From positions 1-46,325 of the forward strand of contig DVDV01000429.1 in the NCBI GenBank assembly GCA_015296075.1: 46,325 nucleotides of DNA. The letters are read 5' to 3'. A program made the position numbers and the translations under genes. Positions within the stretch are counted from its first letter, which is position 1. Each line of letters opens with the position of its first letter. Shown piece after piece: positions 138-6,163 of this stretch. The notes under the pieces were generated by a model. The model made no database searches. It saw only the letters and a program-made list of their open reading frames with translations, and had not been told where the DNA came from. This DNA is from Leptolyngbyaceae cyanobacterium M33_DOE_097 (GTDB taxonomy: Bacteria > Cyanobacteriota > Cyanobacteriia > Leptolyngbyales > Leptolyngbyaceae).

Positions 138-324
138 GAATCGATTCCCAGATCACGGGTTCGTTTCAAGTCTGCTGAGCAATTCTAGAAGGGCTGATCT
201 TCATGCTGTGGCTCACCAGAGTCTTCTCAAGCCAGCTTACCTATCCAGTTTTGCTATCTTCTATTTGTCTGAGTGCGTTTATTAATCCCGGTCTGGTCGT
301 TTTTACCCTTCAGGATTTTAAGTT

Positions 325-1110
325 GTGCTTTCTTCTCAACTGCTTCAGTTTTATCGCCAAGCCAGCCAGCAGCAATTCACCGTCGTTGATGTTGAAACAA
401 CCGGTAGCAAACCACCGGATGCACGCGTGATTGAGGTATCTGTCTTGCAGGCCAGTTTAGAAGATGGTCTTTTAGGTCAGCAAACCTATCTAGTGAACCC
501 CCAGGTGCCTGTACCCGCTTCGATCACAAACTTTACCGGCATTACTCAGGCGATGGTTGACCAGGCTGCATCGACCGAAGAAGTTTGGCAGACGTGTCTA
601 CCCTGGTTAAGTCAGGGGATTTTGACAGCCCACAACTTAGATTTCGATTATCGGTTCATTCAGTCAGAGTACGCGGCGCTCGATGTTGACTTTGGTCGAG
701 AGACGAGTGACCAGCTATGTACCGTCATTTTGTCGCGGTTGATGTTGCCAGAGTTGCCTTCGCGCAGCCTGCCCAATTTGGTGCGACATTTTCAATTTGA
801 TGTCGGGCGATCGCACCGGGCTGAAGCCGATACCCTCGCGTGTTGGCTGTTGCTGAAACGGCTACTCACCGAGATTCTCAACGAGCCCGATGAAGTCTTG
901 CTGCCTCGCTTTGCTAAGCAATGGATTTCGTTAAAGGATGCGGCTGAGATTTTGCGTTGCACAGGCAGACAGGCGCGATCGCGGCTTGCCAAAGCAGGGG
1001 TTGAGCCAAAGTTAGTGGGGCGCTATAAAACGCCAATGTATCAACGGGGTAAGGTTGAACAGTTTTACAGGCAGCAAAGACAACCCGAACAACTCTCCTG
1101 GCTTGAGTAG
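325..1110 (+). CDS. DEDDh 3'-5' exonuclease (DNA polymerase III epsilon-like)
   Basis: A 261-residue protein with the three exonuclease motifs of the DnaQ/epsilon family. Exo I is VVDVETTG (Asp22 and Glu24, metal ligands), Exo II is TAHNLDFDYRF, and Exo III is HRAEADT, whose His marks the DEDDh subclass. Such enzymes remove 3' nucleotides from DNA or RNA using two metal ions. The catalytic domain ends near residue 185. The remaining ~75 residues (ISLKDAAEILRCTG onward) resemble a small helix-turn-helix or excisionase-like DNA-binding segment, which the epsilon subunit lacks. The start is a GTG at 325 with only a weak ribosome site. Replicative proofreading or a stand-alone repair role cannot be separated from sequence alone. 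It is the first gene after the left terminal repeat. Confidence 0.85.
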   Translation: MLSSQLLQFYRQASQQQFTVVDVETTGSKPPDARVIEVSVLQASLEDGLLGQQTYLVNPQVPVPASITNFTGITQAMVDQAASTEEVWQTCLPWLSQGILTAHNLDFDYRFIQSEYAALDVDFGRETSDQLCTVILSRLMLPELPSRSLPNLVRHFQFDVGRSHRAEADTLACWLLLKRLLTEILNEPDEVLLPRFAKQWISLKDAAEILRCTGRQARSRLAKAGVEPKLVGRYKTPMYQRGKVEQFYRQQRQPEQLSWLE

Positions 1111-4343: not shown

Positions 4344-5332
4344 GTCACCCCCTTGAGGCTGCCGCGATCGCCTATACGGCACCCGACTATCTTGCCGAAG
4401 TTCAAGACGCACAGGCGCGAGCAGAAATTGCTACCCTGCGGCGCGATCGCCAAGCCAAACTGTTTGAACCAGTGATTCAGCCTTACCGTGAAGCGGTCTT
4501 ATCGGTATGCGATTTACAGAGTGACTGGTTTGATTTTTCTGGCTCAGTCGTCACAATCGGGCGATCGCAAGAGCTGACGCCAGCCCAGCACACCACACTC
4601 ACGCAGGCACTCCGCACCTTTTGCCCCTGGAAAAAAGGCCCCTTTGACGTGTTTGGCACCCTGATTGATGCAGAGTGGCGCTCTGACTGGAAGTGGGAAC
4701 GCATTCAACCCCACATTCAACCGCTCAAAGACCGCACAGTTGCGGATATTGGCTGCCACAACGGTTATTTTATGTTTCGCATGGTCGATCAATCGCCTGC
4801 CTGCGTGGTTGGGTTTGAACCGGTTGCCAAGCATTTTTGGAACTTTCAGCTCCTACAAAACATCACCCGGCGATCGCAACTCACTTTTGAATTGTTGGGG
4901 GTTGAGCACATGCACCTTTATCCCAATTTCTTTGACACCATTTTTTGCCTGGGGATTTTGTATCACCACCCTGACCCGATCGGCCTTTTACTCAAATTGC
5001 GGCAAGCCCTCACCCCCTCTGGCGAAATCATCATCGACTGCCAGGGCATTCCCGGTGAGATGCCCGTTGCCCTCACTCCCCGCAAACGCTACGCCAAAGC
5101 CCGTGGCATCTGGTTTCTGCCGACTCAAGCCTGTCTCGAAACCTGGCTCGCCCGTGCTGGCTTCAGCCAAATCAACACCTTTTTTGCCGAACCTCTCTCT
5201 ACTCAAGAGCAACGCCGCACCGACTGGGCCGAAATTGACAGCTTGCAAGATTTCTTAGACCCTGACGACCCCTCGCGTACCATCGAAGGCTATCCTGCAC
5301 CCTGGCGCTATTACGCGATCGCCCGCAAGTGA
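4340..5332 (+). CDS. cmoB: tRNA U34 carboxymethyltransferase CmoB
   Basis: A 330-residue methyltransferase-fold protein, close to the usual CmoB length of about 323. The N-terminal third is CmoB-specific, including the segment around GPFDVFGTLIDAEWRSDWKW. It is followed by the nucleotide-binding motif TVADIGCHNGYFMFRM and then FDTIFCLGILYHHPDPIGLL, typical of CmoB. The enzyme transfers a carboxymethyl group from carboxy-SAM to 5-hydroxyuridine at tRNA position 34, giving cmo5U and widening decoding of four-codon boxes. It is coupled to cmoA by a 4-base overlap. The proposed hydroxylation enzyme (TrhP-like) is encoded 2 kb downstream on the other strand. I see no clear terminator before the micro-ORF array, so they may share a transcript. 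Confidence 0.92.
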   Translation: MSHPLEAAAIAYTAPDYLAEVQDAQARAEIATLRRDRQAKLFEPVIQPYREAVLSVCDLQSDWFDFSGSVVTIGRSQELTPAQHTTLTQALRTFCPWKKGPFDVFGTLIDAEWRSDWKWERIQPHIQPLKDRTVADIGCHNGYFMFRMVDQSPACVVGFEPVAKHFWNFQLLQNITRRSQLTFELLGVEHMHLYPNFFDTIFCLGILYHHPDPIGLLLKLRQALTPSGEIIIDCQGIPGEMPVALTPRKRYAKARGIWFLPTQACLETWLARAGFSQINTFFAEPLSTQEQRRTDWAEIDSLQDFLDPDDPSRTIEGYPAPWRYYAIARK

Positions 5333-5489
5333 CCGCTACCCCCTGCTTTGTGACGTACAACACAAAACTTCAGTGAGACTCGTCAGCATTTCGTGAGAGA
5401 AATTTCACAACTTCAATGTGGAATCAATCACCAGGCAACCAGGGTCAAACAGGCATGATGAATCATGTAAGCCTTAGAGGAAATCAGCC

Positions 5490-5621
5490 ATGTGGTTCAT
5501 CAAACGTCAAGCGCCCTCTGAAAAAACACAGCCCCAGCAAAGCAAGATCACTGCCTCCGAAAATGGGCAAACCCACCGCAGTCGCGTTGACTTCTGGTTC
5601 AACTACGCGTCCAAAAAATAA
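5490..5621 (+). CDS. DFWxNY micro-ORF A (43 aa), unknown function
   Basis: The first of four tandem tiny genes, found by reading the sequence. It starts at ATG 5490, 9 bases after a good ribosome site (GAGG at 5477-5480). The product begins MWFIKRQAPSEKTQPQQ and ends in RSRVDFWFNYASKK. Only the C-terminal third resembles the other three copies; the N-terminal half is divergent, polar and Gln/Lys-rich. There is no signal peptide or membrane segment. The spacing to copy B is 41 bases. I do not recognise the family. Coding status is supported by the shared C-terminal motif and ribosome site, but it is the most divergent copy. Confidence 0.65.
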   Translation: MWFIKRQAPSEKTQPQQSKITASENGQTHRSRVDFWFNYASKK

Positions 5622-5662
5622 CCCTCTCAGATTAGCCCCCAACACCATCAAGAAATTTCGCC

Positions 5663-5794
5663 ATGCGCTCCACTAATCGTCAAGCCGTCATCCAAGAATT
5701 ACGCCACCAACTCCGCTACACCAACTCTCCCGCAGAACGGGAAAGCCTGCGTAACCGCATCGACTTCTGGATGAACTACACTTCCAACCACTAA
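5663..5794 (+). CDS. DFWxNY micro-ORF B (43 aa), unknown function
   Basis: Starts MRSTNRQAVIQELRHQLRY and ends RNRIDFWMNYTSNH. Two amphipathic Arg-rich helices (about residues 5-19 and 24-39) appear to be joined by a turn at NSPAE, suggesting a helical hairpin. It has the same length as copies A and C and is closely related to C along its whole length. Many of the DNA differences between B and C are at third codon positions, which argues for selection on the protein. The ribosome site is weak (AAGAAA). It lies 41 bases after A and 44 before C. Confidence 0.75.
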   Translation: MRSTNRQAVIQELRHQLRYTNSPAERESLRNRIDFWMNYTSNH

Positions 5795-5838
5795 CTCCGG
5801 CCAACTGACCCTGCCCCCTATATAGAAGGAAATACACA

Positions 5839-5970
5839 ATGCGTTCTGCTAATCGTCAAGCTGCCATTCAAGAATTACGCCACCAACTCCGCTACGCCAG
5901 CACCCCTGAAGAACGAGAAACCCTCCGCAATCGTCTCGACTTCTGGCTCAACTACTTCCCCAGACATTAA
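5839..5970 (+). CDS. DFWxNY micro-ORF C (43 aa), unknown function
   Basis: Starts MRSANRQAAIQELRHQLRY and ends RNRLDFWLNYFPRH. It has a strong ribosome site (AGAAGGAAA around 5824-5832) and the same predicted two-helix shape as B, with the turn at STPEE. Hydrophobic positions are conserved against B (Ile/Leu/Val swaps in the DFW region) while codons vary, as expected of a translated paralogue. No catalytic or metal-binding residues stand out. Its proximity to cmoB could mean a shared transcript, but that is inference. Confidence 0.78.
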   Translation: MRSANRQAAIQELRHQLRYASTPEERETLRNRLDFWLNYFPRH

Positions 5971-6001
5971 CTCTTCCCACCCCCACCCCAAGGAAAAGCT
6001 C

Positions 6002-6163
6002 ATGGGTTCCAAAGATCGTCAGGCCTACGTGAGAGCGTTACGCCAACAGATTTGCTACGTTCAAGAATTACGCCATCAACTCCGCTACGCCAACACTCCC
6101 GAAGAACGAGAAGCGATTTGCAACCGCATCGACTTCTGGCTGAACTACGTTCCCAACAAGTAA
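6002..6163 (+). CDS. DFWxNY micro-ORF D (53 aa) with internal duplication
   Basis: The last and longest copy, preceded by AAGGAAAA at 5990-5997. It starts MGSKDRQAYVRALRQQICY and ends CNRIDFWLNYVPNK. Relative to B and C it carries about ten extra residues because the helix-1 segment is doubled (LRQQICY followed by LRHQLRY). The second half matches copies B and C almost exactly. It contains two Cys residues, unlike B and C. It ends 31 bases from the stop codon of the convergent U32-family gene. Unknown family; function not inferable. Confidence 0.75.
   Translation: MGSKDRQAYVRALRQQICYVQELRHQLRYANTPEEREAICNRIDFWLNYVPNK

What the first reader, a model, noticed from the sequence alone, without database searches (positions are those of the whole stretch)
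5490..6163. Array of four tandem micro-ORFs sharing a DFWxNY motif, unknown family
Seen directly: four consecutive same-strand ORFs of 43, 43, 43 and 53 codons, spaced 41, 44 and 31 bases apart. Three (A, C, D) have a clear ribosome site; B has a weak one. All end in (R/C)(N/S)R(I/V/L)DFW(F/M/L)NY plus four residues. B, C and D also share an ELRHQLRY helix. Third-position variation with conserved residues points to selection on the protein. The predicted shape is an Arg-rich helical hairpin. I recall no described family with this pattern. They sit between cmoB and the U32 pair, so a role connected to tRNA modification, RNA or ribosomes is possible but only inference.
Basis: partly seen in the sequence, partly recalled or inferred. 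Interest (0 to 1): 0.82.

Follow-up and report, generated by a model that had tools for sequence, protein, structure and literature searches.

The report
Cyanobacterial small-protein family, tandemly amplified
Four tiny genes in a row belong to an undescribed family of 43-residue cyanobacterial proteins that probably help adjust nitrogen metabolism, because relatives carry the binding-site pattern of the nitrogen regulator NtcA and this cluster shares a promoter pattern with other nitrogen-linked small-protein genes.

Summary
They belong to a family absent from the libraries searched, found in 44 of 388 cyanobacterial genomes (one match doubtful), usually once, with core ELRHQLRY...ERE.IR.EL[DN]FW. 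AlphaFold2 gives a two-helix hairpin. B-D are under purifying selection; A keeps only the ends.

The tRNA/ribosome link is not supported: neighbours differ elsewhere. Promoters give the lead. GTA-N8-TAC (NtcA-type) precedes 23 of 31 relatives, 8 of 212 neighbouring ORFs and 21 of 134 further control ORFs. In Nodosilinea-type genomes it ends about 18 nt before the ATG, which suits repression, as for gifA and pirA. The array and its closest paralogue (C391) lack it. They carry TCAC-N22-CATGAT, also found before 14 of 25 non-riboswitch DUF4278 genes fetched by Pfam match and 0 of 346 control ORFs. DUF4278 is the N-terminal domain of the glutamine synthetase inhibitor IF17.

Best reading: a new family of small basic regulators controlled by nitrogen status, duplicated in this genome and moved to a second promoter class. 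Family and promoter patterns are shown; regulator, target and function are inferred.

The parts
5350..5363 (+). GTG-N8-CAC, CRP-like site 1 upstream of copy A
   Evidence: a GTG-N8-CAC also lies at the matching position upstream of the C391 paralogue; function not shown
5418..5431 (+). GTG-N8-CAC, CRP-like site 2; its right end TCAC (5428-5431) is the first half of the promoter module
5428..5459 (+). promoter module TCAC-N22-CATGAT (hexamer 5454-5459) shared with the C391 paralogue, many DUF4278 genes and one 90-aa ORF
   Evidence: 0 of 346 control upstreams; only + strand occurrence in the 46-kb window (one on the - strand at 5058; 0.35 expected)
5452..5473 (+). leader element GGCATGATGAATCATGTAAGCC
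   Evidence: four exact matches to the degenerate form in the genome, each 15-23 nt before a short ORF; five more only at 3 mismatches, where the reversed control gives four
5490..5621 (+). ORF A, 43 aa; divergent copy, keeps the RQA start and the RVDFWFNY end, middle unlike the family
5663..5794 (+). ORF B, 43 aa, canonical hairpin sequence
5839..5970 (+). ORF C, 43 aa, canonical hairpin; AlphaFold2 model, helices 2-19 and 23-38
6002..6163 (+). ORF D, 53 aa, canonical hairpin sequence with a 10-codon insertion in helix 1

Best explanation
The array is a lineage-specific tandem amplification of a small-protein family that is normally single copy in Leptolyngbya/Nodosilinea-type cyanobacteria. 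The protein is a basic two-helix hairpin of about 43 residues. I think it works as the known NtcA-controlled small regulators do: it is made according to nitrogen status and acts by binding a target protein (an enzyme of nitrogen or carbon assimilation, or a regulator such as PII) through its arginine-rich face and the conserved [DN]FW end. In Nodosilinea-type genomes the NtcA-type box lies in a position fit for repression, so the protein should accumulate when nitrogen is plentiful. In this genome a duplicated branch (C391 plus the array) has no such box, carries a TCAC-N22-CATGAT promoter pattern shared with DUF4278 genes, and was amplified to four ORFs. A member of the same branch in G014 still has a GTA-N8-TAC, so the change of promoter probably came later. 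Shown: family, selection on B-D, predicted hairpin, promoter sequence patterns. Inferred: which regulator binds, the direction of control, a single transcript, the target and the function.
For: Family and distribution: 42 of 388 and 44 of 388 genomes. Selection. Hairpin. NtcA-type box: 23 of 31 relatives' upstreams against 8 of 212 neighbouring ORFs; strict TGTA-N8-TACA 20 of 31 against 3 of 212; resampled sequences give a mean of 0.7 and a maximum of 5. Further controls: 1 of 36 window ORFs, 1 of 14 in other loci of the genome, 19 of 84 in loci of the same order, many of which hold DUF4278 genes (strict 0, 0 and 4). After merging similar upstreams 22 of 34 clusters have it, three of the 34 being array ORFs B-D. 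The genome's own IF7 gene, whose homologues are NtcA-repressed (PMC6316151, passages), carries GTAACATTAGATAC. Promoter module: of 25 DUF4278 upstreams fetched by Pfam match and free of a riboswitch text motif, 14 carry TCAC-N22-[CG]AT[GT]AT; of all 31 such upstreams 19 do; 0 of 346 control ORFs. DUF4278 covers the N-terminal part of IF17, and glutamine riboswitches are mainly found before DUF4278 genes (PMC6316151, passages); I find them on 3 of this genome's 15. In G014 a decayed member lies directly before a DUF4278 gene. B-D have pI 9.2-10.7.
Against: No expression, binding or knock-out data. 8 of 31 relatives, C391 among them, have no GTA-N8-TAC in 160 nt, and neither has the array. One control set (84 upstreams of the same order) has it in 19, though the strict form in only 4. 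The box's distance to the ATG varies (-18 to -140), so the repressive position holds mainly for the Nodosilinea group. The regulator behind TCAC-N22-CATGAT is unknown; 11 of the 25 DUF4278 upstreams lack the module, as does the G014 paralogue. There is no sequence kinship with IF7 (hhalign 0.3%). PirA could not be compared. Copy A looks degraded or repurposed. Nodosilinea promoters are related by descent, so the 23 of 31 are not independent.
Confidence: 0.5

Rival explanations
1. An NblA-like adaptor: a small two-helix protein induced in nitrogen starvation that binds a phycobilisome part or another protein and hands it to a protease.
For: Two-helix hairpin of the right size class with NtcA-type boxes in the family; in members where the box lies 76-115 nt before the ATG (for instance L016, L017, L021, L030) activation is possible. 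That NblA is a helical, nitrogen-controlled adaptor is recalled, not from a call.
Against: No NblA entry among the Pfam matches of 25 members at E up to 0.1; in Nodosilinea-type genomes the box ends about 18 nt before the ATG, which leaves no room for a promoter downstream of it.
Confidence: 0.15
2. An RNA- or ribosome-associated basic peptide.
For: Arg-rich, pI 9.2-10.7; weak S21 matches for 5 of 25 members, best E 0.0036; a queC-like ORF near the Nodosilinea form (my reading).
Against: Profile comparison with S21 gives 0.1% although the two halves of the family find each other at 99.5%; the genome has four S21 matches of its own; the window's tRNA-related neighbours are not kept at the relatives looked at.
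Confidence: 0.12
3. A photosystem- or stress-related small protein whose control by nitrogen is incidental; the TCAC-N22-CATGAT promoter would answer to another signal, such as cAMP.
For: The array and C391 carry GTG-N8-CAC pairs like CRP sites, and a 90-aa ORF with an apparent membrane segment shares the module.
Against: No hydrophobic stretch in the family (highest 15-residue Kyte-Doolittle mean 0.12 over 27 members); the other genes found with the module are DUF4278 genes, which the literature ties to glutamine signalling.
Confidence: 0.15
4. A decaying repeat: the array is a by-product of tandem duplication with little function left.
For: Copy A has lost the core; the G014 paralogue has a frame break; B against D gives dN/dS 0.66.
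Against: B and D against the C391 paralogue give dN/dS 0.04 and 0.08, and C against it saturated synonymous change with dN 0.11; the core is intact in all three.
Confidence: 0.08

Closest known systems
GS inactivating factors IF7/IF17 (gifA, gifB)
   Same: Small basic cyanobacterial proteins whose genes have NtcA sites near the core promoter (passages); the DUF4278 part of IF17 links to the array through the promoter module shared with other DUF4278 genes.
   Different: No sequence kinship (hhalign 0.3%); 43 against 65/149 residues (lengths); the genome has separate IF7-like and IF17-like genes.
PirA (ssr0692)
   Same: 51-residue positively charged protein, NtcA-repressed, with two NtcA sites upstream (PMC8092223, passages); four of the clusters here also have two boxes.
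   Different: Its sequence was not at hand, so homology was not tested; PirA homologues are reported as frequent in cyanobacterial genomes, while this family was found in 14 of 160 genera.
DUF4278 (PF14105) small genes
   Same: 14 of 25 non-riboswitch ones share the TCAC-N22-CATGAT module; one in this genome also has the exact GGCATKATNARTNNTGTAAGCC leader.
   Different: Unrelated protein sequence by its YRG motif and Pfam.
NblA
   Same: Small helical, nitrogen-controlled cyanobacterial protein (recalled).
   Different: No Pfam match.

Membership tests
GS inactivating factor IF7/IF17 | sequence homology to IF7 | tested here: not met
   hhalign against 20 IF7 homologues, probability 0.3%; family split in two as positive control 99.5%
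GS inactivating factor IF7/IF17 | NtcA-type box near the promoter | tested here: inconclusive
   met by pattern in 23 of 31 relatives against 8 of 212 controls; not met by the window array; start sites unknown
GS inactivating factor IF7/IF17 | binds and inactivates glutamine synthetase | not testable with these tools
   needs protein work
PirA | sequence homology to Ssr0692 | not tested
PirA | binds PII | not testable with these tools
   needs protein work
NblA | Pfam NblA profile match | tested here: not met
   no such match at E up to 0.1 in 25 members
Ribosomal protein bS21 | profile match over the curated cut-off | tested here: not met
   5 of 25 members match only weakly, best E 0.0036 in NCBIfam and 0.026 in Pfam; hhalign 0.1%
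Effector-associated domain EAD9 | Pfam match over the cut-off | tested here: not met
   one member, 16.5 bits against 25
Phage or anti-phage defence small protein | match in PHROGs, PADLOC, phage records, plasmids or viral contigs | tested here: not met
   PHROGs only weak single matches, best E 0.047

The most novel reading that the evidence does not exclude
Leptolyngbya-type cyanobacteria run an undescribed regulon of tiny proteins (stand-alone DUF4278 proteins plus this hairpin family) from one promoter class, TCAC-N22-CATGAT, beside the known glutamine-riboswitch class. The hairpin family is a new group of small inhibitors in nitrogen or carbon assimilation, and in this genome it was moved from NtcA control to the new promoter class and amplified in tandem to raise the dose and vary the binding surface (A and D being altered copies).
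Probability: 0.3. Interest if true: 0.75.

Novelty: new member of a known kind. Interest (0 to 1): 0.56.

Why it matters
Small proteins set the flux through nitrogen assimilation in cyanobacteria, and those in the papers I saw come from a few model strains. This gives a new family with a clear motif, a defined set of genomes, and promoter evidence for where to look for its signal. It also gives a promoter module that joins it to the expanded DUF4278 genes, whose function beyond IF17 is open as far as I saw. The duplication with a change of promoter type is a traceable case of a small protein moving between regulatory circuits. All of this can be tested in one culturable Nodosilinea or Leptolyngbya strain.

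Tried and rejected
tRNA-modification/ribosome link: neighbours are not conserved, S21 rejected. IF7 kinship: rejected. Riboswitch in the array leader: Rfam finds none; the glutamine riboswitch occurs on other DUF4278 genes. RNA hairpin for the leader element: considered by eye; in two of the four copies a pair is broken, so I prefer a DNA promoter element; not computed. Frameshift as the origin of copy A's odd middle: the other frames, read by eye, do not give the motif (and sequence). sigma-70-type promoter before A: none found. Fold search: no hit at E 0.001 or below, best E 1.0, as expected for a two-helix hairpin. A first genome-contig scan with the four window proteins alone found no relative. 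Literature: searches gave 0 papers; a search for the motif ELRHQL gave 3 papers whose titles are unrelated; in the listings no title or abstract start names this family. Of six papers I read passages only; that the family is not in print rests on these searches alone.

Weak or dropped rows: G010 and G349 (two stops inside) are probably chance. L007 (frame break) and L011 (weak) were left out of the 31 relatives, and of 48 matches only the best ones were given loci. One of the 17 rows of the S21 alignment (L218) was not S21. The upstream set holds six rows found through the element or by family (L095, L096, L109, L114, copy A, C391). The other 37 are a hand choice out of 120 DUF4278 matches (all of G002 and G025, all of the window genome but two, a few of others), 12 of them set aside for a GGAAGTA text motif; that leaves the 25. 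The C336 match had no start that I could place.

Full report
What is there. The four ORFs are at the stated coordinates with the stated lengths, gaps and motifs, as four copies of a 148-nt repeat. The flanks are a Methyltransf_9 gene (cmoB-like; E 4.6e-99) before and two U32 peptidase genes on the other strand after. No Rfam family reaches its cut-off in the window.

Family. In the same genome there are two further copies: C391:13981-14109 (81% identical to B) and C69:3982-4104, the ordinary form. Across the class, 42 of 388 genomes match the first broad profile (E 0.001 or less) and 44 of 388 the second (E 0.01 or less, one of them doubtful), in 14 of 160 genera. In one search, 42 of the 44 have one match; the window's genome has six and G014 two. 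Named records (28 loci) are labelled Leptolyngbya, Leptolyngbyaceae, Nodosilinea, Phormidium, Halomicronema, Tildeniella and Shackletoniella, or filamentous cyanobacterium without a genus. Members begin with ATG and the forms I chose are 39-48 residues long. Nothing over a curated cut-off is found in Pfam or NCBIfam, only weak single matches in PHROGs, nothing in PADLOC (97), no PDB sequence below E 0.57 (33), and no relative in phages (searched with C), plasmids (searched with the G002 copy) or viral contigs (searched with the alignment) (23, 24, 99).

Selection and descent. Against the C391 paralogue, B differs by 20 synonymous and 10 non-synonymous changes (dN/dS 0.04), D by 19.5 and 15.5 (0.08), and C has saturated synonymous change. 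Among themselves B-C, B-D and C-D give 0.21, 0.66 and 0.28. By codon position B, C and D differ from C391 at 6/3/21, 6/4/23 and 9/3/23 bases. A is different: 19/14/28, with 19 of 22 residues changed in the middle, and dN/dS of 0.41 to 0.85 against B-D. A tree puts A-D, C391 and a decayed G014 copy in one clade (99/95) apart from the ordinary form, with the warning that there are few columns and that A is a very long branch.

Structure. AlphaFold2 on copy C with 27 sequences gives helices 2-19 and 23-38, mean pLDDT 86.6, pTM 0.59. A Foldseek search of PDB gives no significant hit.

Promoters of the ordinary form. Within 160 nt upstream, GTA-N8-TAC occurs in 23 of 31 relatives (C391 included; L007 and L011 left out) against 8 of 212 upstreams of ORFs of 90 aa or more in 32 loci, mostly Nodosilinea-type; strict TGTA-N8-TACA in 20 of 31 against 3 of 212. 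Further controls: window ORFs 1 of 36 (strict 0), other loci of the genome 1 of 14 (0), loci of the same order 19 of 84 (4); the last set is high, and many of its loci hold DUF4278 or IF17-like genes, so it is not a clean control. Merging upstreams of similar sequence leaves 22 of 34 clusters, where the 34 include array copies B-D. The genome's own ordinary copy has TGTAACAAAAACTACA at -78. In Nodosilinea-type genomes the box begins about 32 nt before the ATG and often sits in a longer palindrome. Activation by NtcA needs the box near -41.5 of the start site (PMC8092223, passages), which here would put the start site inside the gene, so repression is the better reading. Some members have two boxes (four clusters), as reported for Anabaena gifA and for pirA. 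This reading is inference; no binding was measured.

Promoter of the array. Copy A and the C391 gene share an upstream region without that box. It has two GTG-N8-CAC sites at matching places (-141/-140 and -73/-72; controls 2 of 212; 1 of 36, 0 of 14, 1 of 84). It also has a leader element with four exact genome matches to GGCATKATNARTNNTGTAAGCC, each 15-23 nt before a short ORF: A, C391, a DUF4278 gene and a 90-aa ORF; at 3 mismatches five more appear, against four for the reversed control. With up to one mismatch to a looser form in the order, 11 relatives have a match; two of these (G032, G012) precede DUF4278 genes and the other nine do not. I then fetched upstreams of DUF4278 genes found by Pfam (38 of 42 genomes have them, 120 matches, 15 in this genome). 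In 31 upstreams without a riboswitch text motif, TCAC lies exactly 22 nt before [CG]AT[GT]AT for 18 of 22 hexamers in the last 80 nt, at 21 nt for two, and at five other spacings once each; in 212 controls none of 17 hexamers has TCAC at 8-40 nt. The module is in 19 of the 31, in 14 of the 25 that were not brought in by the element itself, and in 0 of 346 control upstreams (36 window, 14 other loci of the genome, 84 same order, 212 others). In this genome 8 of 15 DUF4278 genes have the module, 3 have the glutamine riboswitch by Rfam, and 4 have neither. The spacing equals that of a class II CRP/NtcA-type activator site (established knowledge, recalled), but the regulator is unknown. The G014 copy of the same branch has GTATCGTCTGTTAC and no module, so the module was probably gained after the branch arose.

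Meaning. DUF4278 covers the N-terminal domain of IF17, and glutamine riboswitches lie mainly before DUF4278 genes (PMC6316151, passages). PirA and IF7 show the working model: small basic proteins, NtcA-repressed, acting by protein binding (PMC8092223, PMC6316151, PMC7760959, PMC9196836; passages only). The family here is not IF7. By reported distribution it is unlikely to be PirA (41, 80), but that was not tested by sequence. I therefore hold it to be a new group of the same working kind, at about even odds.

Limits. There are no expression data; related promoters are not independent; part of the promoter set was found through the motif (the separate count is given) and the rest is a hand choice of 37 of 120 matches; and the whole-genome count of the module could not be made.

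Noticed in passing
G000 (window genome): C216, C195, C154, C326, C52, C380, C435, C11, C88, C116, C393, C336, C283: Fifteen DUF4278 matches in one genome, split into riboswitch, TCAC-N22-CATGAT and other upstream types.
   Followed up: partly
L095 (G000:C16), ORF 308-580 (+): 90-aa ORF of no Pfam family with an apparent membrane segment, behind the same leader element and promoter module as the array.
   Followed up: partly
L007 / L162 (G014:C1:5591660-5592020, - strand): A paralogue of the array clade whose ATG is out of frame with its conserved part, directly before a DUF4278 gene; it has an NtcA-type box and not the module.
   Followed up: partly
L071, L072: A branch of the family (Halomicronema, Leptolyngbya SIOISBB) that keeps ELRHQLRYAN but ends in QIDAMRRHG/QIDAIRRHG, without the FW pair.
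   Followed up: no
L148 (G000:C195) and L160 (G000:C104): Further weak IF7-like matches in this genome, the first with a stop inside and next to a DUF4278 gene.
   Followed up: no
L060 8292-8439: A c-di-AMP riboswitch near the Nodosilinea-type locus, apparently unrelated to the family.
   Followed up: no
window 6002-6163: ORF D carries a 10-codon insertion in helix 1 (RALRQQICYVQELRHQLRY) that looks like a tandem duplication, a possible change of the binding surface.
   Followed up: no
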